Below are positions 356 to 5,702 of a stretch of 12,250 nucleotides of DNA, piece after piece. The notes under the pieces were generated by a model that worked only from the letters and a program-made list of their open reading frames with translations, was not told the origin of the DNA and ran no database searches. A program made the position numbers and the translations under genes. This DNA is from J061 sp003695725 [NCBI: Candidatus Schekmanbacteria bacterium] (GTDB lineage Bacteria; Schekmanbacteria; GWA2-38-11). Location of the stretch: contig RFHX01000225.1 in NCBI GenBank assembly GCA_003695725.1, positions 1-12,250 of the forward strand. The letters are read 5' to 3'. Position 1 is the stretch's first letter, and each line of letters opens with the position of its first letter.

Positions 356-577
356 ATGATTGAAAAAGTCAAAAGTGTTATAGACAAGATTAGGCCAAGA
401 CTTCAAATGGATGGCGGCGATATTGAATTAGTTAGCATAGAAGACAATGTTGTAAAAGTGAAACTTCAAGGCGCCTGTCACGGATGCCCCGGCGCCCAAA
501 TGACATTAAAAATGGGCGTAGAAAGAATGATTAAGGAGGAAGTGCCAGAAATCAAAGAAGTTATATCTGTAGAATAA
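356..577 (+). CDS. NifU C-terminal-domain (Nfu-type) Fe-S carrier protein
   Basis: A 73-residue stand-alone NifU C-terminal domain. The N-terminal half has the typical IRPRLQMDGGDIELV segment (12-26). The cluster-binding motif is C41-H-G-C44 followed by PGAQMTLK, the signature of Nfu proteins, which hold a [4Fe-4S] cluster between two subunits and deliver it to apo-proteins. The length matches single-domain Nfu proteins, with no N-terminal scaffold fused. A GAGAGG Shine-Dalgarno lies about 10 nt before the ATG. It sits 37 bp upstream of the DsrE gene and in the same unit as a separate IscU-type scaffold (2265-2645), so the functions of a full-length NifU are split over two genes here. The family call is secure; specific client proteins cannot be read from the sequence. 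Confidence 0.92.
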   Translation: MIEKVKSVIDKIRPRLQMDGGDIELVSIEDNVVKVKLQGACHGCPGAQMTLKMGVERMIKEEVPEIKEVISVE

Positions 578-614: not shown

Positions 615-1037
615 GTGACTGAGAAAAAGGATAGATTCTTCATTCTTTCTCACAGCAGTAATTATGACCGTTTATACCAAACAATAACCATTGCGGTTAC
701 TGCTGCATCTTTGGGAAATGAAGTCTATGTAGTCTTATTCTTCGATGCTCTTCGAAAATTTGTGGAAGGCGAAATGGATAGGGAAGATTTGTCCGATGAT
801 ATGGGAGCAGAAAAGAAGGAAGTTTATAAAAGGATGAAAACAATGAATCCTATGAGTATGCAGGAAATGATAGATACTGTTAAGCCCCTTGGAAATTTGA
901 AGTTCATCGCTTGCAGTGCAAATGTTGAATTTATGGGATTAGAAAAAGAAAAAGTGTTAGAAAAAGTCGATGAAATTATGGGGCTTCCTACTATATTGAA
1001 AATGATGAAAGAAGCAAAAAATCAGCTTTACATTTGA
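615..1037 (+). CDS. DsrE/DsrF-family sulfur-relay-like protein
   Basis: A 140-residue soluble protein with the DsrE-like alpha/beta layout. It opens with a hydrophobic strand (FFILSHS, 8-14), followed by a helix (TITIAVTAASLG) and a second strand (VYVVLFF, 37-43). A late strand carries the single cysteine Cys100 in FIACSANVEFMGL. That Cys matches the conserved position that carries persulfide in active DsrE-family members. The start is GTG at 615: the nearby ATGs at 604 and 607 are in another frame and stop within seven codons, and the Shine-Dalgarno is weak. The gene lies 18 bp before the NifS-like gene and shares its unit with a TusA-family carrier, a known kind of partner for DsrE proteins. 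Whether Cys100 accepts sulfur is inference; related proteins of unknown function exist. Confidence 0.82.
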   Translation: MTEKKDRFFILSHSSNYDRLYQTITIAVTAASLGNEVYVVLFFDALRKFVEGEMDREDLSDDMGAEKKEVYKRMKTMNPMSMQEMIDTVKPLGNLKFIACSANVEFMGLEKEKVLEKVDEIMGLPTILKMMKEAKNQLYI

Positions 1038-1055: not shown

Positions 1056-2240
1056 ATGGGTGATAGAATATATATGGATTATGCATCAACGACACCTCAA
1101 TTGAAAGAAGTAACTGAGGCAATGATGCCATTTTTTGAAGAAGAGTTCGGCAATCCCCAAAATCTTCACTCCTTCGGTGAAGGACCCAAAAAAGCAATTG
1201 ATGAAGCAAGGGAAAAGGTAGCCAATCTCATTGGTGCTGAACCATCAGAGATTTATTTCACTTCAACTGGCACGGAAAGCAACAATATGGCAATAAAGGG
1301 AATAGCTGCAGCGAATCAGAAAAAAGGGAAGCATATAATCAGCACTCAGATTGAGCATCATTCCGTTCTTCACAGTTTGAGGACTCTTGAAAAACAGGGA
1401 TTTGAAGTAACCTACCTGCCAGTTGATAAATATGGGAGTGTAAATCCGCAAGATGTTGAAAAAGCGTTAAGGGATGATACTATTCTTGTAACAGTAACTC
1501 ATGCATCAAATGAAATAGGGACCATTGAGCCAATAAGTGAAATCTCCAAAATCTTAAAAGGCAAAAAGATACCTTTTCATACCGATGCGGTGCAAACAGC
1601 AGGGACGATTCCAGTTGATGTAAATGAGCTTGGCGTTGACCTTCTTAGTATGGCTGCTCATCAATTTTACGGACCAAAGGGAGTAGCGGCTCTCTATATA
1701 AGAAAAGGGACAAGAATCATTCCGATAATCGACGGAGGAATTCAGGAAAACGGAAGAAGAGCAGGCACAGAAAATGTCGCAGGCATCGTGGGAATGGGAA
1801 AAGCTTGTGAAATCGCAAAAAGAGAAATGGAATCGAGGATAAAAAAACTGACAGAACTTCGCAACAAACTGATTGAAGGATTAACTTCATCGATCTCCCA
1901 CTCATATTTGAATGGGCATCCTGAAAAGAGACTACCCGGCAATGCAAATATCTCTTTTGAATACATTGAAGGCGAGTCGATGCTGCTTTTTCTAAATATG
2001 CAGGGCATTGCGGCATCGAGCGGTTCTGCTTGTACATCGAGGGCTCTAAAAGCTTCTCATGTGTTGACAGCAATGGGGATACCGCCCGAAATCGCACAGG
2101 GGTCTCTGCTTTTTAGTCTTGGTATTTACAATACAGAAGAAGATATAAAAAAGGTGTGCGAAGTGCTTCCTCCTATAGTTGACAGGTTGAGGCAGATGTC
2201 TCCTCTCTATGAAGAAGCACAGAAAGCAGGAAAAATTTAG
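1056..2240 (+). CDS. NifS/IscS-fold cysteine desulfurase homologue lacking the PLP lysine
   Basis: A 394-residue, full-length class V aminotransferase-fold protein of the NifS/IscS group. Normal family features are MDYASTTP (7-14), FTSTGTESNN (68-77), His101 of EHHSV, Asn152 of SNEIG, Asp177 and Gln180 of HTDAVQ, GRRAGTEN (233-240), and the sulfur-accepting Cys326 in SSGSACTS. The expected Schiff-base lysine of the S-x-H-K-x-x-GPKG motif is Gln203 (CAA at 1662-1664) in AAHQFYGPKG. The Ser three residues earlier is Ala200. The usual ARGSLRFSLGR segment reads AQGSLLFSLGI, so the substrate-carboxylate Arg is Leu352 and two other Arg are lost; the usual GGGQERG also reads GGIQENG. The frame is intact, so this is not a decayed pseudogene. 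It is unlikely to perform ordinary PLP-dependent desulfuration. It could act as an IscU-binding partner, a persulfide relay or a cluster ligand donor. Ribosome site AAGGGGAAG precedes the ATG, and iscU follows after 24 bp. Confidence 0.9.
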   Translation: MGDRIYMDYASTTPQLKEVTEAMMPFFEEEFGNPQNLHSFGEGPKKAIDEAREKVANLIGAEPSEIYFTSTGTESNNMAIKGIAAANQKKGKHIISTQIEHHSVLHSLRTLEKQGFEVTYLPVDKYGSVNPQDVEKALRDDTILVTVTHASNEIGTIEPISEISKILKGKKIPFHTDAVQTAGTIPVDVNELGVDLLSMAAHQFYGPKGVAALYIRKGTRIIPIIDGGIQENGRRAGTENVAGIVGMGKACEIAKREMESRIKKLTELRNKLIEGLTSSISHSYLNGHPEKRLPGNANISFEYIEGESMLLFLNMQGIAASSGSACTSRALKASHVLTAMGIPPEIAQGSLLFSLGIYNTEEDIKKVCEVLPPIVDRLRQMSPLYEEAQKAGKI

Positions 2241-2264: not shown

Positions 2265-2645
2265 ATGGAAAAGTATAGTGATAAAGTAATGGACCACTTT
2301 ATGAATCCCCGCAATGTAGGGGAAATAGAGGATGCTGACGGAGTAGGACAAGTTGGCAATCCTTCCTGCGGAGATATAATGAAGCTTTATATCAAGGTGG
2401 AAGACGGTAAAATCGTAGATGCCAAATTTAAGACCTTTGGATGTGGTGCGGCTATAGCTACAAGCTCAATGGTTACAGAAATGGTCATTGGGAAAACAAT
2501 AGATGAGGCGATGAAGATAACAAAGCAGGCCGTTGCAGATGCGCTCGATGGTTTACCGCCGCAGAAGATGCATTGCTCGAATTTAGCTGCCGACGCTTTA
2601 AAGGCGGCAATAGAAGAATATCAGAAAAAAAACAGCAATCAATAA
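2265..2645 (+). CDS. iscU: IscU-type Fe-S cluster assembly scaffold
   Basis: A 126-residue scaffold protein on which [2Fe-2S] clusters are built, normally with sulfur from IscS/NifS. All ligand positions are present: Cys35 and Asp37 in GNPSCGD, Cys60 in TFGCGAAIA, and His103-Cys104 in KMHCSNLA. The HscA-binding segment usually written LPPVK reads LPPQK (97-101), a mild change. Length equals stand-alone IscU, without the ferredoxin-like middle or the C-terminal domain of full NifU. A good AAAGGAG lies ahead of the ATG. It directly follows the NifS-like gene that lacks the PLP lysine, so either sulfur arrives by another route (TusA/DsrE, free sulfide, a second desulfurase elsewhere) or the NifS-like protein works in an unusual way. 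The function as scaffold is well supported by motifs. Confidence 0.93.
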   Translation: MEKYSDKVMDHFMNPRNVGEIEDADGVGQVGNPSCGDIMKLYIKVEDGKIVDAKFKTFGCGAAIATSSMVTEMVIGKTIDEAMKITKQAVADALDGLPPQKMHCSNLAADALKAAIEEYQKKNSNQ

Positions 2646-2658
2646 GGAGAATAACTAT

Positions 2659-2892
2659 ATGGAAGCAGATGAAGTACTTGATGCAGTAGGACTGTACTGT
2701 CCAATGCCAATTCTATTGACTACACAAAAAATCAAAGAACTGAAAAAAGGGCAAATTCTTGAAGTAATCGCAGATGATGAAGGTATTGTGAAAGATATGC
2801 CTTCATGGTGCAAAACAACTGGAAATGAATTTCTAAAAATTGAGAAAGAAGATGATCAGTTTCATGTTTTTGTAAAGAAAACAACTGATTAG
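2659..2892 (+). CDS. TusA-family sulfur carrier protein
   Basis: A 77-residue SirA/TusA-fold protein. The diagnostic motif is GLYCPMPILLT (11-21), where Cys14 of the CPxP element carries persulfide sulfur in the family. The rest follows the family: helix TTQKIKELKKGQILEVIADDE, then KDMPSWCKTTGNEFL with a second Cys at 51, and a terminal strand. TusA proteins accept sulfur from desulfurases or rhodaneses and hand it to DsrE-type or biosynthetic partners in the cytoplasm. It starts 13 bp after iscU with an AAGGAG site, and ends 22 bp before the radical SAM gene. That placement makes it a candidate sulfur donor either to the scaffold or to the downstream modification system; the sequence does not decide between them. 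Confidence 0.92.
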   Translation: MEADEVLDAVGLYCPMPILLTTQKIKELKKGQILEVIADDEGIVKDMPSWCKTTGNEFLKIEKEDDQFHVFVKKTTD

Positions 2893-2914
2893 ATTCTCTT
2901 CTTGATATGAAATT

Positions 2915-4099
2915 TTGAAATCGAAAAAAGATACAGAGCTATATCCGGTTTTTGAAGACGGAGTTTATTTAAAATATCTTGAAGAGCCGGCTGTTTATAA
3001 TATAAAGAATGATGAGCTCTATGAAATCAATGAAGAAGCATTAGATTTCCTAAAAAAATGCAATGGACTCAATCCTCTTTCAAATCTGCAGTATGATGAA
3101 GAATTTTTGTCATACTGCATCGATGAAAAACTAATTTCTCTAAAAGAAAAGAAAGAAAAACATTTTCAAAGCCAACCCATAAAAAAACCAACACTCCCTT
3201 CACTTCGTTATCTCGAGCTTCAAATCACCGACCGCTGCAACCTCAAATGTAAGCACTGTTATCTTGGAAATCCGAAGAAAAGAGACTTGAAGATAGGAAT
3301 CATTGAATCGCTCTTCGACCAATTTGAAGAAATTCAGGGATTGAGAATGATTATTTCAGGCGGAGAGCCGCTTCTTCATCCTCGATTTGAAGAAATCAAT
3401 GAACTTCTAAAAGATAGAAGCTTTAGAGCTATTTTGTTAACTAATGGAACACTTTTAGATGAAGATTTAATTGCAAGAATAAATGTACAGGAGTATCAGA
3501 TTAGTATTGATGGTTTGGAAGAAGCTCATAATTTTTTAAGGGGCAGAGGAACATTCAAAAAATCGATGCAATCTGTTGAAATGCTTCTCAAAAAGGGTAT
3601 CGATGTGTCAATCGCCACTATGGCCAATAAAAAAAATGCCAATGATTTTCCCGCAATGGAAAAGATATTCAGGGATATGGGAATAAAGGAATGGTCTGTT
3701 GATGTACCTGTTTCTTTGGGATATGCTACCACTTATTCTTCATCAATTCTTCTTTCTCCTAAAGAAGCTTATAAATATCTAAATTTTGGATTTGGAGGTG
3801 GACTTTACAATTCATCAGAAGGATATGCCTGCGGGGCCCATCTGTGCGCTGTTACTCCAAATGCAGATGTATGCAAATGTGGTTTCTATTATGACTCTCC
3901 ATCAGGAAATCTTGAAAAGAAATCACTTAAAGAATGTTGGGAAAAAATTGAGAAAATTAGAATCGACGAAATAGAATGCAGAAACTGTAAAGTTGTAAAT
4001 GAATGCCGCGGTGGATGCCGTTATCGCGCATCTATGGAAGGCTCAGAAAAAGGAACAGATATAGTCAAATGCTTCTTCTACGGAGTTAAAAATCCATAA
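2915..4099 (+). CDS. Radical SAM/SPASM protein, probable peptide maturase
   Basis: A 394-residue radical SAM enzyme. Residues 1-80 resemble a PqqD-like/RiPP recognition winged helix (DGVYLKYL, YEINEEALDFLKKCNG, then ...DEKLISL). The core has the cluster motif C108-x3-C112-x2-C115 and GGEP at 149-152. The C-terminal SPASM region carries Cys306, 311, 320, 322, 341, 355, 358, 364, 368 and 386, ending in CRNC...NECRGGCRYRA. This is the arrangement of enzymes with two auxiliary 4Fe-4S clusters that modify peptides by radical chemistry. The start is TTG at 2915, since a stop (TGA, 2903) lies in frame just above and the ATG at 2907 is in another frame with an immediate stop; the Shine-Dalgarno is poor. 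A 20-codon Cys-rich ORF lies 102 bp downstream and is the natural substrate candidate. The product class cannot be told from sequence. Confidence 0.9.
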   Translation: MKSKKDTELYPVFEDGVYLKYLEEPAVYNIKNDELYEINEEALDFLKKCNGLNPLSNLQYDEEFLSYCIDEKLISLKEKKEKHFQSQPIKKPTLPSLRYLELQITDRCNLKCKHCYLGNPKKRDLKIGIIESLFDQFEEIQGLRMIISGGEPLLHPRFEEINELLKDRSFRAILLTNGTLLDEDLIARINVQEYQISIDGLEEAHNFLRGRGTFKKSMQSVEMLLKKGIDVSIATMANKKNANDFPAMEKIFRDMGIKEWSVDVPVSLGYATTYSSSILLSPKEAYKYLNFGFGGGLYNSSEGYACGAHLCAVTPNADVCKCGFYYDSPSGNLEKKSLKECWEKIEKIRIDEIECRNCKVVNECRGGCRYRASMEGSEKGTDIVKCFFYGVKNP

Positions 4100-4126
4100 A
4101 TTTTACATTTTTTTTTTGATTATTCC

Positions 4127-4155
4127 TTGCGGTTTAAAACATTATTAATTATCAT
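4127..4155 (+). promoter_or_regulatory. Candidate promoter for the small cysteine-rich peptide
   Basis: TTGCGG (4127-4132) and TATCAT (4150-4155) are spaced by 17 bp, with an AT-rich stretch between and after. The -10 matches in five of six positions, the -35 in only three. Transcription would start around 4162 and give a roughly 40-nt leader to the GTG at 4202. A separate promoter would let the peptide be made in excess over its maturase. Support is modest because the sequence is very AT-rich. Confidence 0.35.
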
Positions 4156-4188
4156 AATTTTATTGGACGACTCCTAAAAAACCCCGGG

Positions 4189-4197
4189 AGGAGGTGA
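4189..4197 (+). promoter_or_regulatory. Near-perfect Shine-Dalgarno of the 20-codon peptide ORF
   Basis: AGGAGGTGA matches the 16S anti-Shine-Dalgarno over nine bases, and its last base is four bases before the GTG start at 4202. It is the strongest ribosome site in the window and is the main reason for treating the tiny ORF as real. An upstream CTCCT (4171-4175) could pair with AGGAG (4189-4193) in a weak five-pair hairpin, a possible but unproven way to mask it. Confidence 0.8.
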
Positions 4198-4201
4198 TAC
4201 T

Positions 4202-4264
4202 GTGAAGATTAGAAAGATTTCAAAATCATCTGCATCAACCTGCAAATGCAAATCATCCTGCTAA
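4202..4264 (+). CDS. 20-residue cysteine-rich peptide, candidate RiPP precursor
   Basis: This short frame begins at GTG (4202-4204) and ends at TAA (4262-4264). It encodes a basic N-terminal part, MKIRKISKSSAS, followed by TCKCKSSC with Cys14, Cys16 and Cys20, the last being the C-terminal residue. It lies between the radical SAM/SPASM gene and a strong terminator, is preceded by a nine-base Shine-Dalgarno, and has a possible promoter of its own. A short basic leader, a Ser/Cys-rich tail and an adjacent SPASM maturase are the usual signs of a ribosomally made, modified peptide. Thioether cross-links or metal binding through the C-x-C-x3-C tail are possible products; I do not recognise a named family. 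It could instead be an unmodified metal-binding peptide. An attenuator leader is unlikely because no + strand gene follows the terminator. Confidence 0.72.
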   Translation: MKIRKISKSSASTCKCKSSC

Positions 4265-4289
4265 TTTCCTTATTTTCCATAGTTTATGA

Positions 4290-4323
4290 GAGGAAGTCTA
4301 AGATGGACTTCCTCTTTTTTTTT
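4290..4323 (+). terminator. Strong rho-independent terminator
   Basis: A perfect nine-pair stem, GAGGAAGTC (4290-4298) with GACTTCCTC (4306-4314), has a seven-base loop and is followed by nine T residues (4315-4323). It closes the + strand operon 25 bp after the peptide stop. On the opposite strand the same stem lacks a T run, so it is not a clear terminator for holB. Confidence 0.93.
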
Positions 4324-4352
4324 CAAATGAGGAAAGATTTTTCCTGCCGTTC

Positions 4353-5702
4353 TTAATAAGCTGACAACTGCAATAGAAACTCTTCCACCATAAGCTGTGT
4401 ATTGAAATTTCTGTCAAGCTTGTCAGAAAGCTGGCAGGATTTGAAAAAGATATCTTCAAGTTTCTTTAATTTAGATTCACTAAAATTTCTTAACTTCTCG
4501 ACAATTTCATCAGGAAGAGCAGAATCATCTTCAATGCCTTTCTTAAAGAATATAATATCGCGCAATATTTTTCTGAAACAGGTTAGGAAGAAATCTATTT
4601 TTTCAACACCATTGCCTGTTCTTTCATCAAAGATGCCTTCTTCTACAAAACGCGAGAGAAGTAAATTTTCATCCTTCGTATCTCCAAACAACGAATCAAA
4701 GGCCAGTTTCTTTATTCTCTCAATATCGAAAAGAGCTATTCCCAACGCTTTGCCGGGACTTCCATCTGAAAATGGATATACTTCATTCCACTTTATCTCG
4801 TTCTTGGGAATCTTTTCATTCAAGAGAGAAATAAAATCTCCTTTCTCAAGATAAGAAAACCTTATTGTTTCACACCTTGACTTTATCGTCTGCAACAGCC
4901 CACGAGGGTTTGAAGTTATTAAAATCAATATGGAATCATTTGGTGGCTCTTCCAAAGTTTTAAGAAGTGCATCTGCGGCTTCTTCTGTAATGTTATGAGC
5001 ATTATCTATAATGAATACCTTTTTTCTCCCTTCAGTTGGTTTTAGGTAAATATCCTGAATAATTCCTCGCACACCTCTTCTTCCAATAGGAAGACGGCCA
5101 TTGTAAACATAATTGTTGAGCATTACAAGCTTTCGAAAAAGCTCAACAGCAAGAGGAGATTTGCTTTTCAGATTTTCAGACAACTTCTCAACACATTGAC
5201 TATCAATATACAAGCTGCCATCTGATGTATCTTTCGTAAAAAGAATTTCCTTATTCAAATCAATACAGTCAAGTAAGCTATGAGGAAGCCCGCAAAGTGG
5301 ATTGGGCAAAATAATTCCACATTCCTCCAATGCCTTCAGTGCTTCAGCATATTCTTCTAAAACAGAGTCATCTATATTCTGACCGCTGTAAATTGAATTT
5401 AATATTTCTACGCGGTCAATCCAAAGACGCTCATTTAGATTTCTATAAATTCGTATATCAGGAAAGAAAGTATATCTGTTTTTAATAGAGATACAATTTT
5501 CACATTTGCCGCATATTTCTCCATTGTTGTCATCAAGGCAATTGATTGCTTTTGCAAAGACTTGGGCTGTCATTTTTTTACCGATTCCGGAAGGTCCCTG
5601 AAAAATAAAGGAATGAGGCACAGTTTTTTTCTTCAGTGCATTTTTCAACAAAGCTATCGGTTTTCGATGTCCTTTTATTGTGCTGAAATTCATCTCATTC
5701 AC
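4353..5702 (-). CDS. holB: DNA polymerase III delta-prime clamp-loader subunit with a large insertion
   Basis: A 449-residue AAA+ clamp-loader protein. Visible parts are GHRKPIALLKNALK near the N-terminus, a P-loop GPSGIGKK (36-43) with Lys in place of the last Ser/Thr as often seen in delta-prime, and a zinc module Cys55, Cys64, Cys67, Cys70. The Walker B-like segment is VFIIDNAH (229-236), followed by DALLKTLEEPP (244-254), sensor TSN (263-265) and SRCETIRF (275-282). Between the zinc module (FFPD, 79-82) and RGIIQDIYLKP (212-222), where relatives have a short link, there are about 130 residues, so roughly 100 are inserted, including Cys128, 137, 146 and 170. This explains the length, above the usual 310-350. 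The start is GTG at 5702, with ATG at 5693 as an alternative. The GTG shares one base with the holA stop, implying translational coupling. DnaX is less likely because of the short C-terminal part. Confidence 0.85.
   Translation of the reverse strand: MNEMNFSTIKGHRKPIALLKNALKKKTVPHSFIFQGPSGIGKKMTAQVFAKAINCLDDNNGEICGKCENCISIKNRYTFFPDIRIYRNLNERLWIDRVEILNSIYSGQNIDDSVLEEYAEALKALEECGIILPNPLCGLPHSLLDCIDLNKEILFTKDTSDGSLYIDSQCVEKLSENLKSKSPLAVELFRKLVMLNNYVYNGRLPIGRRGVRGIIQDIYLKPTEGRKKVFIIDNAHNITEEAADALLKTLEEPPNDSILILITSNPRGLLQTIKSRCETIRFSYLEKGDFISLLNEKIPKNEIKWNEVYPFSDGSPGKALGIALFDIERIKKLAFDSLFGDTKDENLLLSRFVEEGIFDERTGNGVEKIDFFLTCFRKILRDIIFFKKGIEDDSALPDEIVEKLRNFSESKLKKLEDIFFKSCQLSDKLDRNFNTQLMVEEFLLQLSAY

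What the first reader, a model, noticed from the sequence alone, without database searches (positions are those of the whole stretch)
4202..4264. Unlisted 20-residue Cys-rich peptide beside a SPASM radical SAM gene
The frame has a nine-base Shine-Dalgarno, a basic leader-like half, a C-x-C-x3-C tail ending on Cys, and a strong terminator 25 bp after its stop. It is easily missed by gene callers. Adjacent to a radical SAM/SPASM protein with a PqqD-like N-terminus, it is a strong candidate for a RiPP precursor of a family I do not recognise.
Basis: partly seen in the sequence, partly recalled or inferred. Interest (0 to 1): 0.85.

Follow-up and report, generated by a model that had tools for sequence, protein, structure and literature searches.

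The report
Conserved tiny peptide with radical maturase
A 20-amino-acid gene too small for the usual protein-family libraries belongs to a peptide family found together with a radical-chemistry enzyme and a third, cysteine-rich protein in diverse bacteria, and its sister peptides sit beside copper-export genes, so it probably makes a small modified metal-binding peptide, of which my searches found no description.

Summary
The ORF at 4202-4264 is real. The same 20-residue peptide, M-x-I-[KR]-K-[VI] ... T-C-K-C-K-x-S-C-stop, lies near the orthologous radical SAM gene in 64 of 83 loci, and elsewhere in the genome in 12 of 13 cases where it is not nearby. It is under protein-level selection (pN 0.20, pS 0.83). 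Of 148 Nitrospirota genomes 51 have peptide and enzyme, 1 and 2 only one, 94 neither; in a broad sample 10 have both and 183 neither. A third component, a seven-Cys protein of about 115 residues without credible family, is in 50 of 53 enzyme genomes and sometimes fused to the enzyme. The enzyme model matches SkfB, SuiB and CteB, with an RRE-like domain. Paralogous CKCH peptides sit beside heavy-metal, copper-type P-ATPases (11 of 15; in a second set of that branch 13 of 19), CKCK-type peptides in 0 of 96. Best reading: a new RRE/SPASM radical SAM RiPP family whose product binds metal, copper in the CKCH branch. Modification and metal binding are inferred.

The parts
4202..4264 (+). 20-residue precursor peptide VKIRKISKSSASTCKCKSSC, GTG start; basic leader-like N-half, TCKCKSSC core-like C-end
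4190..4198 (+). Shine-Dalgarno GGAGGTGAT, 3 nt before the GTG
   Evidence: SD-like sequence before 58 of 59 homologues, window included
4288..4323 (+). intrinsic terminator, 13-pair stem (4288-4316) and T tail
   Evidence: (dG -18.4, z -2.9)
2915..4099 (+). RRE-radical SAM-SPASM enzyme, 394 aa, TTG start, the proposed maturase
2942..3145 (+). N-terminal RRE-like (PqqD-like) domain, residues 10-77
3236..3259 (+). CxxxCxxC motif (CNLKCKHC, residues 108-115) of the radical SAM cluster
3830..4072 (+). SPASM region, seven Cys invariant in 38 rows (306, 322, 355, 358, 364, 368, 386)
2659..2892 (+). TusA-like sulfurtransferase, same order in the two closest relatives
2265..2645 (+). IscU-like Fe-S scaffold (named from its sequence), conserved neighbour
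1056..2240 (+). NifS/IscS-like cysteine desulfurase (named from its sequence), conserved neighbour
615..1037 (+). DsrE-like sulfur carrier, conserved neighbour
356..577 (+). NifU C-terminal (Nfu) Fe-S carrier, conserved neighbour

Best explanation
The ORF encodes the precursor of an undescribed RiPP family. SHOWN by sequence: a 20-residue precursor with a basic N-half and a C-x-C-x3-C end is conserved at protein level and co-occurs with one RRE-radical SAM-SPASM enzyme and one seven-Cys partner protein; paralogous precursors with His in the core sit at copper-type export loci. INFERRED: the RRE (residues 10-77) binds the leader M-x-I-[KR]-K-[VI]; the radical SAM cluster, helped by two SPASM Fe-S clusters and by the seven-Cys partner, oxidises the TCKCKxSC core, most likely forming one or more Cys thioether links; the finished peptide stays in the cell and binds a soft metal through its remaining thiolates (and His in the CKCH form). 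The CKCK form would serve a housekeeping role, the CKCH form copper handling together with the ATPase. One enzyme per genome probably matures both.
For: Conservation and coding constraint. Retention elsewhere in 12 of 13 genomes when unlinked. Co-occurrence with the enzyme: Fisher p 4e-36 among 148 genomes, 6e-17 among 193. Partner in 50 of 53 enzyme genomes (p 3e-33), fused to the enzyme in L096, L107 and G256, and in peptide-partner-enzyme operons in G246 and G298. RiPP-maturase fold with RRE-like domain. Copper-type ATPase near CKCH peptides: 11 of 15 against 0 of 96 CKCK-type; in a second set 13 of 19; three ATPases tested exceed the copper subfamily cut-off TIGR01511. One enzyme match per genome at E <= 1e-50 in each of the 53 positive genomes.
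Against: No modification, product or metal binding was observed. CKCK-type peptides, including this one, are not near such ATPases (0 of 96), so copper may concern the CKCH branch only. The same three ATPases also exceed the cadmium subfamily cut-off TIGR01512, with lower scores, so the metal is not settled. Partner not found in 3 of 53 enzyme genomes, nor in G307 and G331. G175 has peptide and partner but no enzyme found; G060 has the enzyme but no peptide found. L216, L278 and L279 hold CKCH peptides without any metal-type neighbour found. Loci share ancestry, so Fisher values overstate independence. No protease or exporter was among the recurrent neighbours that I annotated.
Confidence: 0.72

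Rival explanations
1. Same RiPP system, but the product is a peptide-derived redox or sulfur cofactor (PQQ- or mycofactocin-like role, or a persulfide carrier tied to the Cys desulfurase/TusA/DsrE genes), not a metal binder.
For: In the window and two relatives the enzyme follows Nfu, DsrE-like, NifS, IscU and TusA in one order; IscU or NifS matches also flank it in Hainich Nitrospiria, Syntrophaceae and some other loci; dsrA over its cut-off is in 42 of 53 enzyme genomes against 19 of 95 others (p 1.7e-12).
Against: Matches to the window's TusA and DsrE-like proteins lie near the enzyme in only 3 of 83 loci, to IscU in 12 (loci are of unequal length); CKCH paralogues follow copper-type genes instead; three invariant Cys and a K-to-H exchange in the core suit metal ligation.
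Confidence: 0.17
2. The peptide is made and used unmodified, as a tiny metallothionein-like Cys peptide; the radical SAM enzyme acts on something else and co-occurs because both serve metal or Fe-S stress.
For: Cys-rich core, copper-type loci for CKCH; peptide genes can lie far from the enzyme.
Against: The N-half is conserved as a recognition leader would be (I3 59 of 59, K5 58 of 59); the enzyme carries an RRE-like domain; peptide-partner-enzyme operons and tight co-occurrence.
Confidence: 0.07
3. A Cys-codon leader peptide for transcription attenuation, or a chance ORF over a conserved RNA element.
For: Own Shine-Dalgarno and a terminator just downstream; in many Nitrospirota loci a conserved 5'UTR hairpin element precedes it.
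Against: Constraint covers the peptide with free third positions; the peptide lies among different genes in different genomes yet tracks the enzyme; no Rfam match at gathering threshold in window 2600-4500.
Confidence: 0.02

Closest known systems
Ranthipeptides / SCIFF with CteB, and sactipeptides with SkfB
   Same: RRE-radical SAM-SPASM maturase and Cys-rich core; fold matches SkfB Z 26.8 (329 aligned, 5.0 A) and CteB Z 23.0 over model 95-390; SCIFFs too are widespread in a clade, which argues against an antimicrobial role (PMC8326336, passages).
   Different: 20 residues with 3 Cys instead of about 45 with 6; none of the 25 best NCBIfam models shown (of 82) reaches its cut-off, best NirJ 106.6 of 515; a seven-Cys partner; precursor genes scattered in the genome; copper-linked paralogues.
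Streptide system (SuiA/SuiB)
   Same: Full-length structural match including the N-terminal domain: 5v1t Z 26.0, 362 aligned, 4.0 A, model 10-392.
   Different: Lys-Trp carbon link (recalled); our peptide has no Trp.
Bufferins and methanobactins (MNIO enzymes)
   Same: Small Cys-containing modified peptides tied to copper (PMC12452194, abstract; methanobactins from the listing of PMC3621798).
   Different: Made with MNIO (DUF692) enzymes; most MNIO precursors have Sec signal peptides (same abstract), which a 20-residue peptide of this kind has not.
Noursin, copper-binding lanthipeptide
   Same: Copper-binding RiPP (PMC10206099, abstract).
   Different: Lanthipeptide synthetase chemistry, unrelated enzyme.

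Membership tests
RiPP system with RRE-containing radical SAM maturase (general kind) | short conserved precursor gene tied to the maturase gene | tested here: met
   64 of 83 loci nearby; co-occurrence 51/1/2/94 of 148
RiPP system with RRE-containing radical SAM maturase (general kind) | RRE (PqqD-like) leader-binding domain | tested here: met
   by predicted fold: whole model aligns to SuiB from residue 10; N-terminus alone matches RREs TbiB1 5v1u (Z 8.0, 66 aligned, 2.1 A), 6jx3 (7.9), 8t19 (7.6), PqqD 5sxy (6.3). Non-RRE winged folds rank level or higher at larger rmsd (8hkr Z 8.6, 3.9 A; GdmN 8.0-8.5, 3.6-3.8 A). Pfam shows no PqqD hit. Peptide binding itself untested
RiPP system with RRE-containing radical SAM maturase (general kind) | enzyme-dependent modification of the precursor | not testable with these tools
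   needs expression and mass spectrometry
SPASM radical SAM family | CxxxCxxC plus seven-Cys SPASM pattern (pattern recalled) | tested here: met
   all ten Cys invariant in 38 rows; spacing CX2CX5CX3C in the window, CXCX5CX3C in many relatives; no Pfam SPASM hit at E <= 1
Sactipeptide / ranthipeptide | Cys thioether cross-link | not testable with these tools
   only fold similarity to SkfB and CteB
SCIFF | six Cys in about 45 residues | tested here: not met
   three Cys in 20 residues
Known NCBIfam radical SAM peptide maturases (GeoRSP, ScmE, SbtM, mycofactocin, Clo7bot, AlbA and others) | score above the curated cut-off | tested here: not met
   none of the 25 best of 82 models shown reaches its cut-off
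Bufferin / methanobactin | MNIO (DUF692) enzyme | tested here: inconclusive
   the tied enzyme is radical SAM; MNIO genes were not searched for in the genomes
Copper-binding peptide | binds copper | not testable with these tools
   genome linkage of the CKCH branch only
Prokaryotic viperin | score of a viperin-specific model above its cut-off | tested here: not met
   NCBIfam viperin_w_prok 65.2 of 180; PADLOC pVip 77.3 bits over residues 102-260 only, the shared core

The most novel reading that the evidence does not exclude
A three-part metallopeptide system: one RRE-SPASM radical SAM enzyme with a seven-Cys partner turns very short, genome-scattered peptides into cross-linked metal ligands, a CKCK form for basic metal or Fe-S handling and a CKCH form placed in copper-export islands. 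It would be the first radical SAM-made copper peptide that I know of, and a case where one maturase serves several unlinked precursor genes.
Probability: 0.42. Interest if true: 0.9.

Novelty: new variant of a known kind. Interest (0 to 1): 0.82.

Why it matters
It adds a RiPP family whose 21-codon gene is easily missed and has no family model. It ties radical SAM peptide chemistry to copper handling, for which the papers I saw describe MNIO and lanthipeptide enzymes. It gives a simple testable set: a 20-residue substrate, one enzyme, one partner.

Tried and rejected
Attenuator or chance ORF: rejected on codon-level constraint and enzyme co-occurrence. Defence role: PADLOC gave only viperin models over the shared core. 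Isc/Tus operon as the general context: rejected, matches to the window's TusA and DsrE-like proteins lie in 3 of 83 loci. A dsrA (sulfite reductase) dependence: correlated but loose, dsrA not over its cut-off in 11 of 53 enzyme genomes, two of which (G062, G124) hold split matches. Known family for the peptide: none in NCBIfam or Pfam at E <= 10 for 32 of 33 homologues (HMMER filters drop weak matches). For the partner: only single-member weak matches, best Pfam Cathelicidins E 0.0036 in 1 of 13, best NCBIfam E 0.084, and solved chains at E 0.15 or worse. Literature: motif strings gave no paper; topic searches gave none or listings whose titles and abstract starts do not describe it. I read no whole paper: abstracts of PMC12452194 and PMC10206099, term passages of PMC12452194 and PMC8326336; PMC12710340 held none of my terms. 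The 2022 atlas of radical SAM RiPPs (Clark and Seyedsayamdost, seen only as a reference) was not read and could list this cluster. The first genome-contig scan with the single window protein found no relative; the alignment scan did and kept 80 of 116. Left out of the copper count: L097, L220 (core CKCKSFC, no clear start) and L239. The printout was cut, so I saw only part of that alignment. VIA-align lists cannot exclude other folds. G110, counted as enzyme without peptide, gave a partial 13-residue match to the CKCH profile on another contig, not followed.

Full report
OBSERVATION. The frame 4202-4264 reads VKIRKISKSSASTCKCKSSC*. It is preceded by GGAGGTGAT (4190-4198) and followed by a 13-pair terminator starting at 4288. 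Upstream, in the same direction, lies a 394-residue radical SAM protein (2915-4099; Pfam PF04055, E 1.4e-20). Before it come TusA, IscU-like, NifS-like, DsrE-like, Nfu and a short ferritin-like ORF.

HOMOLOGUES. The two other genomes of the window's small phylum that hold the enzyme (58% and 50% identity; 3 of 4 genomes of the phylum) carry VKIRKIAKSASITCKCKSSC and MKIRKVTKKAGITCKCKASC behind it, each with a strong Shine-Dalgarno. A three-sequence alignment brought 80 further loci, 80 of 116 relatives, mostly Nitrospirota metagenome genomes with some Syntrophaceae, Desulfobacca and other deltaproteobacteria by record title. Of the 83 loci, 59 have a strictly matched peptide of exactly 20 codons starting with ATG (56) or GTG (3), and 5 more have a slightly different leader (L039, L041, L051, L078, L097). 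It lies downstream of the enzyme except in L096, L107 and L109, where it lies upstream. Of the other 19 loci, six end at most 118 nt after the enzyme match, two of them inside a recognisable peptide start (L030, L047), and 13 lack it nearby. A whole-genome profile search found the peptide elsewhere in 12 of those 13 genomes at E <= 3.8e-4; G060 had none. In eight unlinked copies (L205-L207, L209-L213; L213 comes from the genome of L103, whose record is titled Thermodesulfovibrio) the peptide has 19 residues.

SELECTION. Over 59 sequences, pairwise diversity is 0.218, 0.216 and 0.568 at codon positions 1, 2 and 3; pN 0.20, pS 0.83. Residues I3, C14, K15, C16, S19 and C20 are invariant, K5 and K17 are in 58 of 59. 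C-x-C-x3-C-stop within 400 nt after the enzyme: 61 of 77 loci, shuffled rate 0.0006.

CO-OCCURRENCE. In 148 Nitrospirota genomes the peptide (E <= 0.01) is in 52, the enzyme (E <= 1e-50) in 53, both in 51. The exceptions are G175 (peptide and partner, no enzyme found), G105 (enzyme only a contig-end fragment, open frame 194 codons) and G110 (contig ends about 100 nt after the enzyme match; a partial peptide match on another contig). In 193 genomes spread over the domain, the same 10 have both and 183 neither; G267's peptide is marginal at E 0.009 but reads MKLVKVSKKSRGLCKCCSSC just downstream of the enzyme. Shared ancestry inflates the Fisher values (4e-36 and 6e-17), but linkage that survives relocation of the peptide gene argues for function.

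THIRD COMPONENT. Clustering of ORFs around the 83 loci gave an unfamiliar Cys-rich protein whose cluster has members in 23 loci, in 22 of them on the strand opposite to the enzyme, mostly just upstream (in some loci it is fused to, or split from, a cupin-like part that also clusters here). The same domain is fused to the enzyme's N-terminus in L096 and L107 and G256. Its pattern is C-x3-C-x12-C-x-G ... C-x2-C-x-F-x4-C-D ... P-C-G-G with seven invariant Cys in 13 rows. It is in 52 of 148 Nitrospirota genomes, 50 of them with the enzyme; enzyme without partner: G079, G094, G102; partner without enzyme: G175, G191. In the broad sample it is in 9 of 193: eight of the ten enzyme genomes, missing in G307 and G331, plus G003, a 70%-complete relative. 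In the window's own genome it is a separate gene, G000:C82:4177-4530. In G246 and G298 peptide, partner and enzyme follow each other on one strand within 2 kb. It has no credible family or solved relative.

ENZYME. The AlphaFold2 model of the window enzyme has mean pLDDT 93.6. Best solved matches are SkfB, CteB, SuiB and anSME; SuiB with its precursor aligns over model residues 10-392 (Z 26.0, 362 residues, 4.0 A). The N-terminal 90 residues modelled alone (pLDDT 82.3) match RRE domains: TbiB1 5v1u (Z 8.0, 66 residues, 2.1 A), 6jx3, PbtF 8t19, TigE 8vpo, PqqD 5sxy. Unrelated winged parts (8hkr Z 8.6, GdmN and NovN 8.0-8.5) rank level or higher at 3.6-3.9 A, so this is support, not proof. The three Cys of CxxxCxxC and seven SPASM Cys are invariant in 38 rows. 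None of the 25 best NCBIfam models shown, of 82, reaches its cut-off; the best is NirJ at 106.6 bits against 515.

COPPER LINK. Unlinked peptide copies include a branch with CKCH in place of CKCK. Within 4 kb on either side, 11 of 15 CKCH genes (14 loci) match a heavy-metal P-type ATPase and 14 of 15 an ATPase, a Met-rich ORF or a MerR-type gene; the exception is L216. CKCK-type genes (a few with CKCA or CKCG): ATPase in 0 of 27 unlinked and 0 of 69 enzyme-linked copies, two of the latter with a weak thioredoxin-reductase match. The three ATPases that I scanned (L208, L197, L218) exceed the copper subfamily cut-off TIGR01511 (624, 640 and 477 against 397); they also exceed the cadmium subfamily cut-off TIGR01512 with lower scores (410, 414 and 379 against 313.5), and none reaches the CopA equivalog cut-off. 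As a second test I searched 395 Nitrospirota genomes with a CKCH profile and fetched 20 stretches around its hits, picked by hand from the better-scoring ones; all but G211 are from genomes outside the first 148. They hold 16 CKCH loci, three relatives of that branch (CKFH in L283, CKCY in L286 and L287) and one CKCK control. An ATPase match (E <= 1e-10) is present in 13 of the 19, the one in L275 short; an ATPase or Met-rich ORF in 17 of 19. L278 and L279 have none, nor has the CKCK control. L244 (CKCH) has a Met-rich ORF and an ATPase; L243 (CKCH) a Met-rich ORF and only short matches to the ATPase's Cys-rich front; L245 holds a copy with an in-frame stop beside a Met-rich ORF and an ATPase. 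All 12 genomes of the 148 in which I read a CKCH copy also hold the enzyme, with one match each.

READING. Shown: a conserved precursor-like peptide, its enzyme and partner as a co-occurring unit, an RRE-SPASM maturase fold by prediction, and a copper-type-linked paralogue branch. Inferred: leader binding by the RRE, thioether-type modification of the Cys core, metal binding by the product. The conserved non-ligand residues K15, S19 and T13 are candidate acceptor sites (inference). The CKCK product's metal and role are open; its neighbours vary (Isc-type genes, rubrerythrin, superoxide dismutase, oxidoreductases, TPR genes).

KNOWN OR NEW. Family libraries and paper searches gave no description, within a library that lacks most subscription papers. 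It works like a SCIFF/ranthipeptide or sactipeptide system in its enzyme and like bufferins in the copper setting of one branch. It fails SCIFF's six-Cys definition, and its tied enzyme is not an MNIO. I file it as a new variant of the radical SAM RiPP kind.

Noticed in passing
L231:76-127, L211:4079-4131, L101:3108-3164 and 25 more: In many Nitrospirota loci the CKCK peptide has an upstream TATAAT-like box and a 5'UTR with two small hairpins: the first has an AUGAA loop and compensatory stem changes (8 of 10 predicted pairs in A8 have a both-sided change), the second overlaps the Shine-Dalgarno. A model from 20 loci hits 30 places at E <= 0.1 in 84 other loci (706 kb); by my comparison of coordinates 28 lie right before a CKCK peptide and none before a CKCH peptide. 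No Rfam family reaches its gathering score in the stretches searched. Not seen in the window.
   Followed up: partly
L245:3894-3947 (G063:C8): A peptide copy with an in-frame stop beside a Met-rich ORF and a copper-type ATPase, apparently a decaying copy.
   Followed up: no
L208:2810-3877, L198, L222, L225, L228: Thioredoxin-reductase-like proteins with an N-terminal YHS-like Cys motif recur beside CKCH peptides (6 of 15 genes).
   Followed up: no
L090:3947-4447, L079:5031-5531, L074:7641-8231: Rubrerythrin-type and Fe/Mn superoxide dismutase genes recur near the enzyme in Nitrospirota loci.
   Followed up: no
L307:3962-4351 (G003:C18): A 70%-complete relative of the window genome holds the seven-Cys partner, but no enzyme or peptide was found.
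   Followed up: no
L034 and L044, downstream of the enzyme: A DsrE-like ORF (my reading of the translation) follows the enzyme in two loci without the peptide nearby, again a sulfur-carrier neighbour.
   Followed up: no
L053, L088 (opposite strand); L035, L042, L070, L080, L084 (downstream): Further, divergent radical SAM-like matches (21-26% identity) lie near the enzyme in some loci.
   Followed up: no
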